A stretch of 64,000 nt of DNA from Helicobacteraceae bacterium (lineage in GTDB: Bacteria > Campylobacterota > Campylobacteria > Campylobacterales > Sulfurimonadaceae). The notes below the pieces were generated by a model. The model made no database searches, was not told the origin of the DNA, and saw nothing but the letters and a program-made list of their open reading frames with translations. This document shows positions 1,623-63,821 of this stretch, piece after piece. Location of the stretch: positions 1 through 64,000 of the forward strand of contig CANMJR010000012.1 of NCBI GenBank assembly GCA_947498025.1, written 5' to 3'. Both the position numbers and the translations under genes were made by a program. Numbering within the stretch: the stretch's first letter is position 1; each line of letters begins with the position of its first letter.

Positions 1623-2282
1623 TTAGCCTCTATAGATTTTTTGAAGTGATTCATAATCTGCAATAGTTATATTTGAGTTCTCAATCTCAATAATATTATT
1701 TCTTTTTAACTTTTTTAAGACACGAGAGAGAGTCTCCGGCTGGATATGAAGCATAAAAGAGATCTCTTGTCTTTGAAGAGTATTAAACATTTTTAAATCA
1801 TCATGCAGCATGTATGCAACCTTCGCAGTTGCATCAAATACCAGCTCCCTGTTTACAACACAGTGCAGCTGTTGCGTCTTAAAAAGTACTTCGTTTATAA
1901 ACTCCGTATTTAATCTATTGTTAGATGAGAGCAGTTTCTTTAACTCTATAAAATCCACTTCCAAAATAATACTATCTTCCATAAATTCGGCATTTGAGAA
2001 ACACTGTATAGAGTTGTTGTTTAAAGTTGTAAGTTCTGAAATAAGCGAGCTCTCCTGTATGTTGTATAAAAAAATCTCATTGTCAAATTTATCTATTTTA
2101 TAAACTTTCAAAAGCCCAGAAATTAAAAAAAATATTTTATTATGTGAATCGTTCTCATAATAGAGTATAGATTTTTGAGGGTATTTGATTATATTGGAGA
2201 TTGTATCTACTATCTTAATCTCTTCTCTCTTTAAAGATTTGAAAAAATTTATTTTTTTTATATAGTCTAGTTTTTCATTCAT
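1623..2282 (-). CDS. Crp/Fnr family transcriptional regulator next to nap
   Basis: A 219-residue regulator with an N-terminal cNMP-binding-like beta barrel (about residues 15-120), a dimer helix (about 125-150) and a C-terminal winged helix (about 160-219). The recognition helix contains ETLSR at 183-187, matching the E..SR residues that FNR uses to read TTGAT half sites, and such a box lies upstream of napA. The protein has only two cysteines (94 and 141), so the 4Fe-4S cluster of classical FNR is not expected; the effector is unknown. Functionally it may correspond to NssR or NarR-type regulators of Campylobacterota, but no orthology is claimed. It is probably co-transcribed with the sensor that follows. 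Confidence 0.85.
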   Translation of the reverse strand: MNEKLDYIKKINFFKSLKREEIKIVDTISNIIKYPQKSILYYENDSHNKIFFLISGLLKVYKIDKFDNEIFLYNIQESSLISELTTLNNNSIQCFSNAEFMEDSIILEVDFIELKKLLSSNNRLNTEFINEVLFKTQQLHCVVNRELVFDATAKVAYMLHDDLKMFNTLQRQEISFMLHIQPETLSRVLKKLKRNNIIEIENSNITIADYESLQKIYRG

Positions 2283-2442
2283 ATAAACACCAAATTTTTT
2301 TATATCTATTAACTGTTTAATTTTATTTGTGACATTTCAATTTGCCAAATTTTTTAATAGTTTCATAATTTTAGCATAAAATGATTTTTACAATAGAAAT
2401 GGCATAGAACATGCTTTAAAAAAGTAATAGATAGGGAGTCCC

Positions 2443-3717
2443 ATGAAGTTTATAGAAGCTTTGAAGCTTAAAAGCAAGTTATTTTTTCTTTTTTTACTTA
2501 TTACCCTAGGTCTTGTTGCCGTTGGGATTATGGGAACAATCAATATTAATTCTATGAAAAAAAAGCTGGATTCTCTTTATTTTGGCTCTTTGGTGCCGGT
2601 TACAGAACTCAATGAAATTTTGCAGACATACCATGGAAGTATTACTGCTACATTTTACAGAGCTAAAGATTTGGAGCTTAGTCCAAATGAGACTTTCTTA
2701 TATGTAGAATCTTCACTTATAAAGATAGATAAATTATGGGAAAGTTACGAGAAACATTTTAAAAGAGACAATGAGATGGAATATATTGAGTATGTTTCAT
2801 CAGAGATAAAAGCGACAAACAACTATTTTTCAAAACTCTTAGAGGTACACAAAGCTGAAAATGAGCTAAAAGTTGTTGATACAACCTCTATAGAAAAAGA
2901 GATAGCACATATAGATGTAATTATTCAAAAGTTGATTAATTATGAGGTCGGTGTTGCTAAGTTTGAGAGAACAAAATTTTTGCAACTCTACAACTCTACA
3001 ATTTTGCAGGTGGGTATTGTGTTATTACTCATAATTCTCGGTGTTTTATTTATATCCTATCAGGTCTTTGCAAGTATTCAGAAAGACCAAACAGAGCTTG
3101 AAAATGTAACCAAAAAACTAAGAGGTGCAAATAAAAAGCTTGAAACAGTTTCATACACTGATTCACTTACAACTCTGCATAATAGAAGATATTTTAATCT
3201 TGTATATGAAAGAGAGATAAAAAGAGCAAAACGAACACACTCACACATAACATTTATGATGCTAGATATAGATTACTTTAAGCAATATAATGACACTTAT
3301 GGTCACATCGAGGGAGACTATGCACTGAAATCAGTTGCAAAGGTTTTAAAAGATACATTGCAAAGAGCAGGAGATTTTATTTTTAGACTCGGAGGAGAGG
3401 AGTTCGGTGTTTTGCTCACTCAAACAGATTTTCAAAATAGTGCGATGCTAGCTCAATCTCTCTGTACTGCCGTAAAAGATAGAAATATAAAACATGAAAC
3501 ATCCAAAGCGAGTGAGTTTTTAACAATATCCATAGGGGTCGTGAGTTGCATAGCCGATGATGCCCTAGATGAAAATATTTTGATTTCACATGCAGATAAG
3601 ATGCTTTACATGGCAAAAGAGGGCGGAAGAAACCGTTATGTGATGGACTCTACTATCGGTGAGAGTAAAATATCAAACGACGCTTGGAGCGTTGTAGAGG
3701 TTAGTGTTGAGGTCTGA
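2443..3717 (+). CDS. Membrane diguanylate cyclase (GGEEF) with four-helix sensory domain
   Basis: A 424-residue c-di-GMP synthase. TM segments lie at about 12-32 and 188-207 and enclose a periplasmic region of about 155 residues that looks like a four-helix-bundle chemoreceptor-type sensor. A short coiled coil (about 212-235) leads into the GGDEF domain, whose active-site loop is GGEEF at 317-321. An RAGD sequence at 308-311 fits the allosteric inhibitory I-site (RxxD), so product inhibition is likely. No EAL domain is present. The start is ATG at 2443 with AGGGAG upstream. The 3' end overlaps the convergent SUI1-like gene by 17 bases. Confidence 0.9.
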   Translation: MKFIEALKLKSKLFFLFLLITLGLVAVGIMGTININSMKKKLDSLYFGSLVPVTELNEILQTYHGSITATFYRAKDLELSPNETFLYVESSLIKIDKLWESYEKHFKRDNEMEYIEYVSSEIKATNNYFSKLLEVHKAENELKVVDTTSIEKEIAHIDVIIQKLINYEVGVAKFERTKFLQLYNSTILQVGIVLLLIILGVLFISYQVFASIQKDQTELENVTKKLRGANKKLETVSYTDSLTTLHNRRYFNLVYEREIKRAKRTHSHITFMMLDIDYFKQYNDTYGHIEGDYALKSVAKVLKDTLQRAGDFIFRLGGEEFGVLLTQTDFQNSAMLAQSLCTAVKDRNIKHETSKASEFLTISIGVVSCIADDALDENILISHADKMLYMAKEGGRNRYVMDSTIGESKISNDAWSVVEVSVEV

Positions 3718-59004: not shown

Positions 59005-59730
59005 ATGAAAAAATGGATACTCATTTCACTCCTCACTCTATCACTCTTTGGAGATGATTTTAAAGAGGGAGTTTGTGAATACAACAAAGGCAATAAAACC
59101 AAAGCAGTGGAATTTTTGAAAAAAGCTTGTGATAGTGGAGTTGCCGAGAGTTGTAATAATCTTGGAAATATCTATGATAATGGAGCGGGTGTTAAACAAG
59201 ATAAATTTAAAGCAGTAAAACTCTACAAAATAGCTTGTGATGGTGGAATAACTAATGGTTGTTCCAATCTTGGACTTATGTACTTCAATGGAGAGGGTGT
59301 CAAACAAGATAAAGTTAAAGCAGCAGAACTCTTGAAAAAAGCTTGTGATTGTGGAAGTGTTAGGAGTTGTGAAAATGTTGGATTGATGTATGCCAATGGA
59401 GAGGGTGTCAAACAAGATAAAGTTAAAGCAGCAGAACTCTTAGAAAAAGCTTGTGATGGTGGAAATGCTAATAGTTGTTCTAATATTGGGCTCATGTATT
59501 TCAATGGAGAGGGTGTCAAACAAGATAAGAGTAAAGCAGCAGAACTCTTAAAAATAGCTTGTGATTGTGGAAATACCGGGGGTTGTTTTAACCTTGGAGT
59601 GATGTACGGCAATGGAGAAGGTGTCAAACAAGATAAAAAAATAGCCAAATATTTTTTTGGTGAAGCTTGTTATGGTGGAAGTATTGGGAGTTGTAAAAAT
59701 TATAAAATCCTAAGTGAACAAGGATTTTAA
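59005..59730 (+). CDS. Secreted cysteine-rich Sel1-repeat protein (Hcp type)
   Basis: A 241-residue protein with a signal peptide (MKKWILISLLTLSLFG) followed by six Sel1-like repeats of 36 residues. Each has the form ..LLKKACDxGxxxSCxNLGxMYxNGEGVKQDKxKA. Two cysteines per repeat, spaced to bridge paired helices, match the Helicobacter cysteine-rich proteins (HcpA family). The repeats are also near-identical at DNA level with a 108-base period, so copy number may vary. Location is probably periplasmic or secreted; the partner is unknown. AAAGGAGA precedes the ATG. Confidence 0.85.
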   Translation: MKKWILISLLTLSLFGDDFKEGVCEYNKGNKTKAVEFLKKACDSGVAESCNNLGNIYDNGAGVKQDKFKAVKLYKIACDGGITNGCSNLGLMYFNGEGVKQDKVKAAELLKKACDCGSVRSCENVGLMYANGEGVKQDKVKAAELLEKACDGGNANSCSNIGLMYFNGEGVKQDKSKAAELLKIACDCGNTGGCFNLGVMYGNGEGVKQDKKIAKYFFGEACYGGSIGSCKNYKILSEQGF

Positions 59731-59773: not shown

Positions 59774-60169
59774 TTGATAATCATACTCAAATACCAAAAA
59801 TCAATCATCGCTTCGGCCGGAGGCGGTGCAATAAACTATGAAATCGATTTAACTTCTTTGGTTGTAGATAAGCAACTGTTAGATCATATAAATAGCAGCT
59901 ACAAATATACTGACGTCTTACAGGTGTTTGGAGACTCCATGGAGCCTGATATCAAAGACGGAAGTTTAGTGTTTGTGGATAAAAGTCAGGTGGACATAAA
60001 TAGACCAGGTGTTTATCTACTTCATACTCCAGACGGTTTACATATAAAGAGAATAAAAGCTCAAGGTACGCATCATTACATGTCAAGTATTAACGAGCAG
60101 TACTGTGATGTGAAGTTGGATGAATTCCAAGTGATAGGAGAGGTAAAAGGGTTGTTTCAAAAGTTTTAG
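59774..60169 (+). pseudogene. 5'-truncated S24 phage-type repressor
   Basis: This 131-codon frame matches residues about 87-200 of the repressor at 61712, starting at LKYQKSIIASAGGGAINYE. It keeps the autocleavage region ASAGGG, the catalytic serine in FGDSMEPDI, and the catalytic lysine in GLHIKRI. The helix-turn-helix N-terminus is missing, and the only start is an internal TTG without a good ribosome binding site. Unlike the other copy, its C-terminus is intact (FQVIGEVKGLFQKF). It looks like the remaining right end of an earlier integrated element. Confidence 0.8.
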
Positions 60170-60171
60170 TT

Positions 60172-60242
60172 TTGCTTATGAAATGTGAGTGAAATCGTGT
60201 AAAAACAGCTTATTTCTTTGCGTACTAACATTTCATAAGCAA
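60172..60242. repeat. 15-bp perfect inverted repeat at element end A
   Basis: TTGCTTATGAAATGT at 60172-60186 and ACATTTCATAAGCAA at 60228-60242 are perfect inverted copies. They flank 41 bases just after the repressor fragment. The element end B at 63408-63478 has the right arm intact and the left arm decayed. They could be recombinase or excisionase sites; this is inference. Confidence 0.65.
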
Positions 60243-60271
60243 ATAATTAACATTTTAAAAGCGTTTGTACA
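60222..60271 (+). repeat. 50-bp element-end repeat, copy A
   Basis: GTACTAACATTTCATAAGCA and the following 30 bases, ending GCGTTTGTACA, are identical to 63457-63506 except for one base. Directly after it stand three GGGCACA direct repeats at 60275, 60285 and 60296, spaced 10-11 bases apart, resembling integrase arm sites. The 370-base stretch 60170-60539 holds these repeats, an att-like tRNA fragment, and the region upstream of the MNT gene; no other gene is seen. Confidence 0.8.
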
Positions 60272-60354: not shown

Positions 60355-60372
60355 TGGCTCCGAATACTGGAT
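60355..60372 (-). repeat. att-like copy of the tRNA-Asn 3' end (left)
   Basis: TGGCTCCGAATACTGGAT on the plus strand is the exact complement of the last 18 bases of the tRNA-Asn gene at 63693. It lies 3.3 kb away in the same orientation. This is what integration into a tRNA 3' end leaves at the far end of an element. Confidence 0.8.
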
Positions 60373-60539: not shown

Positions 60540-60839
60540 ATGAACACACAATACGAAATAATAAATTTTTTACAAAATAATCGTAAGCTTTTACTAGAAA
60601 AATATCATGTCACTAAGATAGGTCTCTTTGGTTCATTCGCACGAAATGAACAAAAAGAAAATAGTGATGTTGATTTATTGATAGAGCTTGAAGATGGTAC
60701 ACAAAATATTTATGATTTAAAAGATTCTCTGAAACAATTTCTCTCTTCTTCTTTCAATCGTAGCGTTGATATAGCTCGTGAAAAATATTTAAAACCTTAT
60801 GCAAAAGAACAAATTTTAAAAGATACTTTGTATGTATGA
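60540..60839 (+). CDS. MNT-type nucleotidyltransferase antitoxin
   Basis: A 99-residue minimal nucleotidyltransferase. The motif is GLFGSFARNEQKENSDVDLL (about residues 28-47), with the GS and DxD residues of the fold. In MNT/HEPN pairs this protein adds AMP to the HEPN toxin and inactivates it (known for the family). It overlaps the HEPN gene by eight bases. ATG at 60540 has no strong ribosome binding site. Confidence 0.85.
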   Translation: MNTQYEIINFLQNNRKLLLEKYHVTKIGLFGSFARNEQKENSDVDLLIELEDGTQNIYDLKDSLKQFLSSSFNRSVDIAREKYLKPYAKEQILKDTLYV

Positions 60840-61167
60840 CAATATAACTTTTAATCTTCAAGCTTTGATTGAGTCTATTGAAAAGATAGAACTTTATTCA
60901 AAAGATTTTGATGATGCAGATAAATTTTATCATGACCAAAAAAGTTTTGATGCCTCGATGATGCAATTTGTAGTAATCGGCGAAATCATCTCTCGACTAG
61001 ATGAAAAATTTAAAACCTCTCATAGTGAAATTCCTTGGCAAAAAATCAAAGACTTTAGAAATATTATCGCACATGATTATTTTGGTATTGATGCAGATGA
61101 GATTTGGGATATTATTAACAATAAGCTTTTGCCATTAAAAAATGATATTAATGGGTTATTAGATTAG
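60832..61167 (+). CDS. HEPN-domain toxin
   Basis: A 111-residue helical protein of the HEPN (DUF86) family. The ribonuclease motif RxxxxH is present as FRNIIAHDYFG (about residues 82-92), and a Tyr follows the His, which is the usual AMPylation site in MNT/HEPN systems. It forms a type VII-like toxin-antitoxin pair with the preceding gene. Stop at 61167 is followed by the methylase remnant. Confidence 0.85.
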   Translation: MYDNITFNLQALIESIEKIELYSKDFDDADKFYHDQKSFDASMMQFVVIGEIISRLDEKFKTSHSEIPWQKIKDFRNIIAHDYFGIDADEIWDIINNKLLPLKNDINGLLD

Positions 61168-61180
61168 CTTTATCATTTAA

Positions 61181-61699
61181 AAGATTGGTTATGATATACG
61201 ACACAAAAAATTAAAGCCAAAAAACAAGATTGAAGCAGCTGCTTTTTATCTCTACCAGCTGACGCAAAGTTTTGGTTCTAAGGGCGATAATTTTGCTATG
61301 AGTGCAAAGTCCGGACGCAGACCAAAAGACATATATAAGTCTTACAAAAAGTGGTCAACCAGACTAAAAGGCGTGACAATTGAAAACAAATCTTTTCAAG
61401 AACTCATACCACTCTACGATAAAAAAGAAGCATTTTTCTATGTTGACCCTCCCTATGTTTCAACTGAGAGTTACTATAAAAATACAGGTGGATTTGGAGT
61501 AGAAGAGCACAAACAGCTGGCAGCGCTTTTGTCTAATGTGAAAGGTAAGTTTTTACTCTCATACAATGATTGTGAGCTAGTTAGAGAGCTGTACAAGGAG
61601 TTTAATATAAGAGCTACAAAAGAGATTGAATATACTCTTGGTAAGAATGTGCATGGAAAAAATAAGAGTATGAGAGAGGTGATTATTACTAACTATTGA
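61181..61699 (+). pseudogene. 5'-truncated D12-class DNA adenine methylase
   Basis: The frame is open from 61181 and encodes the C-terminal part of a Dam-like adenine methyltransferase: AAAFYLYQLTQSFGSKGDNF, SGRRPKDI, FFYVDPPYVSTESYY with the catalytic DPPY motif, and LLSYNDCELVREL. The N-terminal S-adenosylmethionine motif (FxGxG) and about 90 residues are missing. The first ATG (61298) is internal. With no N-terminus it should be inactive. It ends 12 bases before the repressor start. Confidence 0.8.
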
Positions 61700-61711
61700 A
61701 TATAATTTTGG

Positions 61712-62314
61712 ATGATAAAAATTGATGAAATTATAGAAAAACTAAAAGACATCTTGTCCCAAGAACTTGGCAATAAAAAGATATTAGACAAGGATATTGC
61801 CAAAGCTCTTGAGATAGATTATGACAGATTTAGAAAACTAAAGAGCCGCGATGGTTCAGTTCCATACCCAGAGATAATGATATTTTTGGCAAAAAGAAAA
61901 ATATCTATAAACTGGTTCTTCTTCAATCAACTGCCAGAAACTCTTATCGAAGCCACATCAGATTACATCATACTCAAGTATCAAAAATCAATCATCGCTT
62001 CAGCTGGAGGCGGTGCGATAAACTATGAAATAGATTTAACCTCTTTGGTCGTAGATAAGCATCTGCTAGATTATATAAATAGCAGCTACAAATATACTGA
62101 AGTTTTGCAGGTGTTTGGTGAGAGTATGGAACCGAACATTAAAGATGGAAGCTTGGTGTTTGTGGATAGAAGTCAGGTAAATATATATAAAGAAGGCATC
62201 TATGTAGTTAATACTGTAGATGGGCTATTCGTCAAAGAGATTGAACTAAAAGATGATAAAATTACTCTTAAATCTACAAATAAAAGCTTTATAGATTATA
62301 GAAGTAAATACTGA
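61712..62314 (+). CDS. S24-family phage-type repressor with late frameshift
   Basis: A 200-residue repressor. A helix-turn-helix lies in residues about 25-55 (DKDIAKALEIDYDRFRKLKS). The S24 peptidase domain has a cleavage region ASAGGG near residue 100, catalytic Ser in FGESMEPNI, and catalytic Lys in GLFVKEI. The frame stops at TGA 62312, but the +1 frame continues from 62313 with DDVNIIGQVCGVFLKV and stops at 62363, matching the end of the truncated paralogue. So about 17 residues are lost by a one-base shift. This removes the last strands and may weaken the protein. The natural stop would lie two bases before the next gene. Confidence 0.85.
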   Translation: MIKIDEIIEKLKDILSQELGNKKILDKDIAKALEIDYDRFRKLKSRDGSVPYPEIMIFLAKRKISINWFFFNQLPETLIEATSDYIILKYQKSIIASAGGGAINYEIDLTSLVVDKHLLDYINSSYKYTEVLQVFGESMEPNIKDGSLVFVDRSQVNIYKEGIYVVNTVDGLFVKEIELKDDKITLKSTNKSFIDYRSKY

Positions 62315-62365
62315 TGATGTTAATATTATTGGGCAAGTTTGTGGGGTATTTTTAAAGGTTTAATA

Positions 62366-63397
62366 ATGAAGACACAATTAGATAAAGACAGTAATCATGC
62401 AGTTGCTTTGTCCAAGAAAGAAGTATCTCCTGTATATATGAGAGTAGATGGCAAATTAGTTAGAAAAGAAAATGATATACGTGATCCAATGAGAAGATAT
62501 GGTGCGATTAATAATATTAATGTCGAATTCACAGATGAAGAAGAAGCTGAAGCTGACCTAAGAGAAGCTAAATGGTTAGAAGAAGCGCCATTACGAAAAA
62601 AACAAGAAGAGGAAAATCATCGTAAAGAGGAAGAATTTATAGCGTCATTGAAATATGAAACTAGGTATGTAGGTTTTTTTGATATTTTAGGATGGTCTGA
62701 TGCAGTTAAGAATTCTGGGAATAATATAGAGATGCAGAAAAAATTGGGACTAGCCTCTAGTGCTATGCGTTCACATACTAAAATGAATGAATGGAAACAG
62801 CAAGTTTCAAATAATCAATGGTCTGGCGATGCACAAATAATTCATTTTTCAGATTCTTTAATTGTATCAACTTCTGCTGATACCCATGGTAGATTAGAAA
62901 TTACTTCAACTTTATCTTTTTTATCAGATGTTTTATTACAGCATGGCTTTCTTTTACGAGGAGGTGTCACCAAAGGAAAGCTTTATCATAAAGATTCATT
63001 AGTGTATGGACCAGCTTTTGATAGAGCCTATGAACTGGAAAATAAGAGTGCTATTTTTCCTAGAGTTATTTTAGATTACTCTTTAGGTGCTGAATGGGGA
63101 CAAGGGTATAATTACATAGAGGATGATAAGATAATTGGACAGGATAAAACTTGGCGTTTAAGTAATGATGGCTTTCGCTTTTTTGATTTTCTACAGCCAT
63201 TTGGTGGTTCTTATGGTTTTTCTGATACTAACTTATTACATTTAAATTTGACAAAGATGCATTCATTTATACATGAACGTTTAATTGAGCATCAAAAAAA
63301 TCTAACAGTTCTACCAAAATATATCTGGTTAGCAGGCTATTTTAATGAAGTTCTAAAGGAATCTGATATTCATGATATTGAATATATATCGATATAA
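62366..63397 (+). CDS. Class III nucleotidyl-cyclase-like protein, unknown function
   Basis: A 343-residue soluble protein. The first 95 residues include a highly charged helix (DEEEAEADLREAKWLEE). Residues about 100-240 follow the class III cyclase pattern: YVGFFDILGWSD with Asp106, IIHFSDSLIVS with Asp163, FLLRGGVTKGKLYH, and LVYGPAFDRAYELE. The two aspartates correspond to the metal ligands of adenylyl and guanylyl cyclases. The end, SAIFPRVILD, is common to a family of uncharacterised proteins. ATG at 62366 with AAAGG upstream is preferred over TTG 62339. It lies two bases after the original stop of the S24 repressor. Enzymatic activity and product are unknown. Confidence 0.6.
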   Translation: MKTQLDKDSNHAVALSKKEVSPVYMRVDGKLVRKENDIRDPMRRYGAINNINVEFTDEEEAEADLREAKWLEEAPLRKKQEEENHRKEEEFIASLKYETRYVGFFDILGWSDAVKNSGNNIEMQKKLGLASSAMRSHTKMNEWKQQVSNNQWSGDAQIIHFSDSLIVSTSADTHGRLEITSTLSFLSDVLLQHGFLLRGGVTKGKLYHKDSLVYGPAFDRAYELENKSAIFPRVILDYSLGAEWGQGYNYIEDDKIIGQDKTWRLSNDGFRFFDFLQPFGGSYGFSDTNLLHLNLTKMHSFIHERLIEHQKNLTVLPKYIWLAGYFNEVLKESDIHDIEYISI

Positions 63398-63456
63398 AGA
63401 TAATATTTGCTTTTAAAATGTGAGTGATTTAGCCATATAAAGGGTTATTTTGTTGT

Positions 63457-63506
63457 GTACTAACATTTCATAAGCAAATAATTAACATTCTAAAAGCGTT
63501 TGTACA
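63457..63506 (+). repeat. 50-bp element-end repeat, copy B
   Basis: This copy is identical to 60222-60271 but for one base (C for T). It is preceded by a decayed left arm of the 15-bp inverted repeat. The following DNA differs from copy A and has irregular GCAC repeats (about 63529-63570). The 295-base gap 63398-63692 carries no gene. Confidence 0.8.
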
Positions 63507-63692: not shown

Positions 63693-63767
63693 TGGCTCCG
63701 AATACTGGATTCGAACCAGTGACCAAGTGATTAACAGTCACCTACTCTACCGCTGAGCTAATTCGGA
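63693..63767 (-). tRNA. tRNA-Asn (anticodon GTT)
   Basis: A complete 75-base cloverleaf including an encoded CCA. The acceptor stem TCCGAAT pairs with ATTCGGA. The anticodon arm reads GGTGA-CTGTTAA-TCACT with GTT at the centre, and the T arm contains GGTTCGAATCC. The 3' end is the attachment site of the element to its left. A 22-base copy of its 3' end also stands upstream of its 5' end. Confidence 0.95.
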
Positions 63768-63799: not shown

Positions 63800-63821
63800 T
63801 GGCTCCGAATACTGGATTCGA
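63800..63821 (-). repeat. att-like copy of the tRNA-Asn 3' end (right)
   Basis: TGGCTCCGAATACTGGATTC plus two bases complements the last 22 bases of tRNA-Asn, 33 bases upstream of the intact gene's 5' end. It is followed by unrelated sequence, so it is a tRNA fragment. The remaining 179 bases to the window end show no gene. Confidence 0.8.

What the first reader, a model, noticed from the sequence alone, without database searches (positions are those of the whole stretch)
62366..63397. Cyclase-like protein coupled to a LexA/S24-type repressor in a tRNA island
The protein has both metal-binding aspartates of class III cyclases (FFDILGW, FSDSLIVS) and the RGG..G and GPA..AYELE blocks, with a charged N-terminal helix. 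It lies two bases behind the natural stop of a repressor that is expected to self-cleave after DNA damage. A damage-induced nucleotide-signal enzyme on a mobile element would resemble the cyclase-based anti-phage systems (Pycsar, CBASS) in logic, but this family is distinct, has no evident effector gene beside it, and to my knowledge is uncharacterised.
Basis: partly seen in the sequence, partly recalled or inferred. Interest (0 to 1): 0.7.

Follow-up and report, generated by a model that had tools for sequence, protein, structure and literature searches.

The report
Phage-borne cyclase-fold toxin-like cargo gene
A leftover piece of a bacterial virus in a Sulfurimonas genome carries a gene for a protein folded like a cyclic-nucleotide-making enzyme; it belongs to a large unstudied family whose known phage relative appears to be a growth-stopping toxin, so it is most likely a defence or conversion gene the virus carried, not a damage-switched signalling system.

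Summary
The ORF is real (62366-63397, 343 aa). Residues ~92-283 have the class III nucleotide-cyclase fold (AF2 pLDDT 90; Z 15 to Rv1625c). D106 and D163 are invariant in 104 relatives, so neither refutation test fires. However, the canonical base-selecting Lys and the transition-state Asn/Arg are not kept in the family, so 'cyclase' is a fold, not a shown activity. The family is widespread and mobile (plasmids, phages, many phyla) and has no recurrent effector gene. Its coupling to an S24 repressor was seen only in this window, and that repressor is frameshifted. Comparison with sister genomes shows why the two are neighbours: the region is a decayed tRNA-Asn prophage end (Dam, S24 repressor, tRNA). 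The slot behind the repressor is empty in four related copies and holds different cargo in two others, one RES-toxin-like. Two phage or prophage relatives sit directly behind a Panacea antitoxin gene. One of these, in a P2-like Burkholderia phage, fits the described PanT 'putative nucleotide cyclase' toxin of phage phi52237. Best reading: a stand-alone cyclase-fold, toxin-like phage-exclusion cargo gene of a temperate phage. The SOS-signal/Pycsar reading is not supported.

The parts
62366..63397 (+). Cyclase-fold protein, 343 aa plus stop (P0001); the cargo gene
   Evidence: ORF; phrog_23933 E 9.5e-29 and phrog_21097 E 7.6e-10; AF2 pLDDT 90, pTM 0.82; class III cyclase fold
62366..62644 (+). 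N-terminal extension (residues 1-93): strands 23-54, then charged helices 57-93; N-terminal extensions also occur in the closest clade (L058-L064)
   Evidence: alignment; secondary structure
62681..62683 (+). D106, first metal-binding Asp
   Evidence: 104/104 in family; aligned with the first metal Asp of PF00211 cyclases
62852..62854 (+). D163, second metal-binding Asp
   Evidence: 104/104 in family; aligned at the GD motif of PF00211 cyclases
62957..63040 (+). RGG...G to GPA...AYELE block (residues 198-225); D219 and E223 sit where cyclases have transition-state Asn and Arg
61712..62314 (+). S24/CI-type repressor ORF, stopped early by a frameshift
   Evidence: PF00717 E 5.8e-15; tail comparison
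62313..62363 (+). Displaced C-terminal tail of the repressor in the +1 frame (DDVNIIGQVCGVFLKV, then TAA)
61191..61699 (+). Dam-type adenine methyltransferase, C-terminal remnant of the phage gene
   Evidence: PF02086 E 1.6e-15; full-length homologue in the sister prophage
63406..63506 (+). Conserved right-end flank of the element; follows the repressor stop directly in empty copies
   Evidence: 83% to 60171-60271
63693..63767 (-). tRNA-Asn (GTT), inferred integration site
   Evidence: att-like repeats
59774..60169 (+). Second, N-terminally truncated copy of the repressor, without cargo (empty-site copy)
   Evidence: 83% over 257 nt to 61967-62223; PF00717
60171..60271 (+). Right-end flank of the empty copy
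60355..60371 (+). att-like remnant TGGCTCCGAATACTGG of the tRNA-Asn 3' end

Best explanation
It is a cargo gene of a temperate phage that integrates at tRNA-Asn. It sits in the variable slot between the phage's right-end S24 repressor and the attachment site, and was probably read through from the repressor transcript. It encodes a stand-alone enzyme with the class III nucleotide-cyclase fold and a two-Asp metal site, but with a rebuilt base and transition-state site. The most likely action is intracellular toxicity (growth arrest through an unusual nucleotide product or nucleotide consumption), held in check in the lysogen and released on infection by another phage, as in PanAT-type toxin-antitoxin or lambda-Rex-like exclusion. 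Shown here: fold, invariant Asps, family spread, cargo slot, Panacea-linked relatives. Inferred: catalysis, toxicity of this member, anti-phage role, expression in the lysogen.
For: Fold: Foldseek E 6.5e-6 and VIA Z 15.0 (rmsd 3.2, 161 residues) to class III cyclases, on a model of pLDDT 90. Metal site: D106 and D163 invariant in 104 sequences, with profile-profile support. Phage setting: sister genomes carry tail sheath, tape measure, Dam and S24 repressor in order, and the repressor runs into tRNA-Asn. Variable slot: empty in four copies; cyclase-like, RES-like (E 0.0012, below cut-off) or 176-aa cargo in three; sequence similarity stops inside the repressor 3' end and resumes at the flank. 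Mobility: 52 plasmids, 26 viral contigs, 13 of 299 genomes of the order. Toxin link: SocA_Panacea genes 5 and 16 nt upstream of relatives in L051 and L117; L051 is a P2-like Burkholderia phage and matches phrog_21097 at 698 bits, to which the window protein also matches (E 7.6e-10). PMC8832971 shows a PanA-paired 'putative nucleotide cyclase' toxin from Burkholderia prophage phi52237. Selection: mostly dN/dS 0.1-0.25. No + strand promoter-like or terminator-like site lies between the repressor body and the ORF.
Against: The window copy has no Panacea or other recognised antitoxin. Most relatives stand alone (32 of 102 have a close upstream and 14 of 102 a close downstream same-strand gene, with no recurrent partner), so the toxin reading rests on two linked relatives and a published toxin whose sequence I could not fetch. 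The family is not in PADLOC. The sister prophage has a second CI-like repressor near its integrase, so expression in the lysogen is not certain. The host prophage is decayed.
Confidence: 0.5

Rival explanations
1. SOS-induced nucleotide-signal enzyme, Pycsar-like: repressor self-cleavage after DNA damage turns on the cyclase, whose cyclic nucleotide activates an effector.
For: Class III cyclase fold with both metal Asps, like PycC (PMC11224242); the repressor keeps an Ala-Gly site and Ser/Lys residues.
Against: No effector gene beside it and no recurrent partner in 102 loci; no PADLOC match; repressor pairing found only here; repressor ORF frameshifted.
Confidence: 0.1
2. The S24 repressor variant is itself the antitoxin or regulator of the cargo, forming an HTH-repressor/toxin pair, as HTH antitoxins precede RES toxins.
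For: Cargo-bearing repressors share a different C-terminal tail (VCGxxxK), and the similarity break lies inside the repressor gene, so repressor 3' end and cargo move together. Another cargo in the slot is RES-like.
Against: The repressor N-terminus is shared with cargo-free copies; no other relative of the cyclase-like protein has such a neighbour; the window copy is frameshifted yet the downstream ORF is intact.
Confidence: 0.15
3. Non-catalytic nucleotide-binding sensor: the fold is kept for ligand binding, and catalysis was lost with the transition-state Asn/Arg.
For: Positions 219 and 223 are I/V/N/L and E/T/D/Q, and the base-Lys position is T/S.
Against: Both metal Asps are invariant over 104 sequences, plus near-invariant R198, E225, R233 and K318, which argues for metal-dependent chemistry. 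Some established cyclases also lack the Asn (PMC4886424).
Confidence: 0.15
4. Housekeeping or conversion gene with no defence role, carried passively in a decaying prophage.
For: The prophage is a remnant, with truncated Dam, truncated repressor copy and frameshifted repressor.
Against: ORF intact; the family is sparse (4% of the order's genomes), mobile and under purifying selection, and its neighbours include restriction-modification, AbiEii and Panacea genes.
Confidence: 0.1

Closest known systems
PanT of Burkholderia prophage phi52237 (PanAT toxin-antitoxin; YP_293707.1, PMC8832971)
   Same: Predicted class III cyclase-like; phage-borne; the L051 homologue sits behind a Panacea gene in a P2-like Burkholderia phage and matches phrog_21097, as the window protein does more weakly
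Class III nucleotide cyclases (PF00211; Rv1625c, CyaC)
   Same: Fold, order of motifs, both metal Asps
   Different: No Pfam match; base-Lys and transition-state Asn/Arg replaced; extra conserved R233, K318, W321; N-terminal helices
DUF2652 cyclase-like proteins (PMC4886424)
   Same: Distant class III cyclase-like family with metal Asps kept and transition-state residues altered
   Different: Separate family; no DUF2652 match
Pycsar PycC
   Same: Cyclase fold with two metal Asps, mobile setting
   Different: No PADLOC match and no effector gene
Lambda rexAB / CarolAnn gp43-44 repressor-linked exclusion genes (PMC6426606)
   Same: Cargo beside and in line with a phage repressor gene
   Different: Unrelated proteins; exclusion not tested here

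Membership tests
Class III nucleotide cyclase | Catalytic-domain fold | tested here: met
   Z 15.0 to Rv1625c; the top Foldseek and VIA rows are class III cyclases
Class III nucleotide cyclase | Two metal-binding Asps | tested here: met
   D106 and D163 invariant, 104/104
Class III nucleotide cyclase | Purine-specifying Lys (and partner) | tested here: not met
   Position four before D163 is I here and T/S in the family
Class III nucleotide cyclase | Transition-state Asn and Arg | tested here: not met
   Aligned positions 219 (I/V/N/L, D here) and 223 (E/T/D/Q)
Class III nucleotide cyclase | Cyclic nucleotide synthesis | not testable with these tools
   needs an enzyme assay
PanAT toxin (PanT cyclase type) | Sequence relation to the phage cyclase-like family | tested here: inconclusive
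   phrog_21097 E 7.6e-10 for P0001 and 698 bits for the Panacea-linked L051 protein, but YP_293707.1 itself could not be compared
PanAT toxin (PanT cyclase type) | Adjacent Panacea (PF13274) antitoxin | tested here: not met
   Neighbouring ORFs in the window are S24, Dam remnant and MNT/HEPN; found only in L051 and L117 among loci searched
PanAT toxin (PanT cyclase type) | Toxic on expression, neutralised by PanA | not testable with these tools
   published for phi52237 PanT (PMC8832971)
Pycsar | PycC-type cyclase by profile | tested here: not met
   no PADLOC match at E up to 1
Pycsar | Adjacent cyclic-nucleotide-gated effector | tested here: not met
   none in the window; no recurrent partner in 102 loci by clustering
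SOS-inducible gene under a LexA/S24 repressor | Intact self-cleaving repressor | tested here: inconclusive
   Ala-Gly site, Ser and Lys present but the ORF is frameshifted before its last segment
SOS-inducible gene under a LexA/S24 repressor | Conserved pairing with the repressor | tested here: not met
   adjacent only in the window's own loci among those fetched

The most novel reading that the evidence does not exclude
A widespread family of stand-alone class III cyclase-fold enzymes, with the metal site kept but base and transition-state residues rebuilt, makes an unrecognised nucleotide product or consumes nucleotides. It would act as a one-gene abortive-infection toxin that phages and plasmids carry as cargo, with Panacea as antitoxin in only some lineages.
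Probability: 0.3. Interest if true: 0.75.

Novelty: new variant of a known kind. Interest (0 to 1): 0.5.

Why it matters
The family is large, mobile and unnamed in Pfam, NCBIfam and PADLOC, yet it has an invariant metal site. If it is toxic or anti-phage, a whole class of 'hypothetical proteins' on plasmids and prophages becomes a nucleotide-based defence family without a partner gene, which partner-based searches for Pycsar or CBASS would miss. The repressor-to-tRNA slot gives a concrete place in Sulfurimonas prophages to look for more such cargo.

Tried and rejected
Single-sequence search of viral contigs and PDB with P0001 found nothing; tblastn against phage records found none. A 15-sequence alignment was too diverse for locus search, so a five-sequence one was used. 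phi52237 records were not in the collections under the accessions tried. Searching phages with the L051 and L117 proteins gave no match. A conserved effector or operon partner was looked for by clustering 868 neighbours: only mobile-element and other unrelated genes recurred, in at most 6 loci. The N-terminal extension gave no significant family. The profile search of PDB gave only weak adenylate cyclase hits (E 0.5-1.8), aligned at the first Asp, behind designed proteins. The BFVD search gave one clear match, a giant-virus protein. Related viral copies beyond L051 were not found with the L051 protein, and plasmid relatives of L117 were the family members already seen.

Full report
What was claimed and what is there. 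It has no match in Pfam above cut-off, NCBIfam, PADLOC or PDB, but matches two phage families of unknown function, phrog_23933 (E 9.5e-29) and phrog_21097 (E 7.6e-10). The window lies in a Sulfurimonas genome: the match in a same-genus genome, G023 (contig of 4464 bases), corresponds to a contig of the same length titled Sulfurimonas sp..

Fold and active site. An AlphaFold2 model built on an alignment of 104 sequences has mean pLDDT 90 and pTM 0.82. Foldseek's best matches are class III adenylyl and guanylyl cyclases (best E 6.5e-6). VIA-align gives Z 15.0, rmsd 3.2 over 161 residues, to Rv1625c, spanning model residues 92-283. D106 and D163 are invariant in 104 sequences; R198, G204, G215, A221, E225, P232, R233 and K318 are nearly so. 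A profile-profile comparison with 18 PF00211 cyclases (E 2e-4, probability only 47%) puts D106 on the first metal Asp and the GPAFDRAYELE block on WGxxVNxASRxE. The transition-state Asn and Arg therefore fall on positions 219 and 223, which are I/V/N/L and E/T/D/Q in the family. The base-selecting Lys position is T or S. So this is a cyclase-fold protein family with the metal site kept and the rest of the pocket rebuilt; cyclase activity is inferred, not shown. PMC4886424 describes a comparable case, DUF2652, and notes that some established cyclases lack the Asn.

Family spread. Relatives occur on 52 plasmid records, in 26 viral contigs, in 13 of 299 genomes of the order, and in 262 confirmed stretches of bacterial and archaeal genomes, of which 80 were kept. 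Close pairs show mostly dN/dS 0.1-0.25, one 0.46. The closest clade (Thiobacillus, Sulfuritalea, Nitrospinota, Rhodospirillales and others; 31-39% identity) mostly has N-terminal extensions, but none of its members has an S24 neighbour.

Neighbourhoods. Among 102 loci, 32 have a same-strand gene within 60 nt upstream and 14 downstream, with no recurrent partner; the largest recurrent groups (4-6 loci) include recombinases, ParA-like ATPases, integrases and HsdM. Operon-linked neighbours include restriction-modification genes, AbiEii and, in two loci, Panacea antitoxin genes. Those two are L051, 5 nt upstream in a P2-like Burkholderia phage whose head genes are 85-87% identical to KL3 and related phages, and L117, 16 nt upstream beside phage genes in Novispirillum. 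Kurata and colleagues showed that a PanA-paired toxin of Burkholderia prophage phi52237, predicted by HHpred to be a nucleotide cyclase, stops growth, mainly blocks transcription, and raises ppGpp through RelA (PMC8832971). phrog_21097 fits the L051 protein at 698 bits, which makes it very likely that this PHROG and phi52237 PanT are the same family. I could not fetch YP_293707.1 to prove it.

Why a repressor is next door. The window holds two copies of the end of one kind of element. Copy 1 is a truncated S24 repressor (59774-60169), directly followed by a conserved flank (60171-60271) and a tRNA-Asn-end remnant (60355-60371). Copy 2 is a Dam remnant, the S24 repressor, the cyclase-like gene, the same flank (63406-63506) and tRNA-Asn. 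In a sister genome, G372, with the same chromosomal neighbours, late-region genes, Dam and a related S24 repressor run into tRNA-Asn. In G025 the same repressor follows tail sheath, tape measure and Dam genes. The slot between repressor stop and flank is empty in four copies (window copy 1, two in G372, one in G025). In the other three it holds the cyclase-like gene (window), a RES-like gene (G409, Pfam E 0.0012, below cut-off) and a 176-aa gene (G025). Similarity between window copies 1 and 2 stops at 62223 inside the repressor and resumes at the flank, and cargo-bearing repressors share a different tail. The cassette thus seems to be repressor 3' end plus cargo.

Mechanism. The neighbour is explained by phage cargo exchange, not by a conserved damage circuit. 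No promoter-like site on the + strand or terminator-like site lies between the repressor body and the ORF, so read-through from the repressor is plausible. Genes placed so are known lysogen-expressed exclusion genes (lambda rexAB; CarolAnn gp43/44, PMC6426606), 434 Hex is another repressor-linked lysogen gene (PMC3564112, abstract), and P2-like phages carry hotspots of anti-phage genes (PMC9122126, abstract). I therefore favour a stand-alone, toxin-like, phage-exclusion cargo enzyme. The caveats are that the sister prophage has a second CI-like repressor near its integrase, that the window prophage is decayed and its repressor frameshifted, and that toxicity of this member is untested.

Verdict. 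The DNA-damage signalling story is not supported. The family is more interesting than this copy.

Noticed in passing
window 60540-61167: A minimal-nucleotidyltransferase/HepT (MNT-HEPN) toxin-antitoxin pair lies between the att-like remnant and the Dam remnant.
   Followed up: partly
window 63800-63821 and L176 about 2145-3109: A second, truncated tRNA-Asn end lies just beyond the first; the contig continues with a C5-type DNA methyltransferase that looks frameshifted, whereas sister G372 has two tRNA-Asn and then groES/groEL, so another element seems to have entered there.
   Followed up: partly
L171 8324-8965 and L172 6838-7479: Sister genome G372 has two S24 repressor copies about 40 kb apart, at the ends of what looks like a prophage, plus a further CI-like repressor near an integrase.
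   Followed up: partly
window 59005-59730: Sel1-repeat protein with 108-nt (36-aa) repeats beside the prophage site, kept in sister genomes.
   Followed up: no
L050 1310-2026 and L085 7944-9797: Family members sit beside or inside type I restriction-modification genes; L085 carries two tandem family members.
   Followed up: no
L175 3914-4828: A RES-domain-like gene (Pfam E 0.0012, below cut-off) occupies the same slot behind the repressor in another Sulfurimonas genome.
   Followed up: partly
L068 7090-7941, L019 5043-5960, L009 3144-3857: AbiEii-type nucleotidyltransferase toxin genes lie at or near three family members.
   Followed up: no
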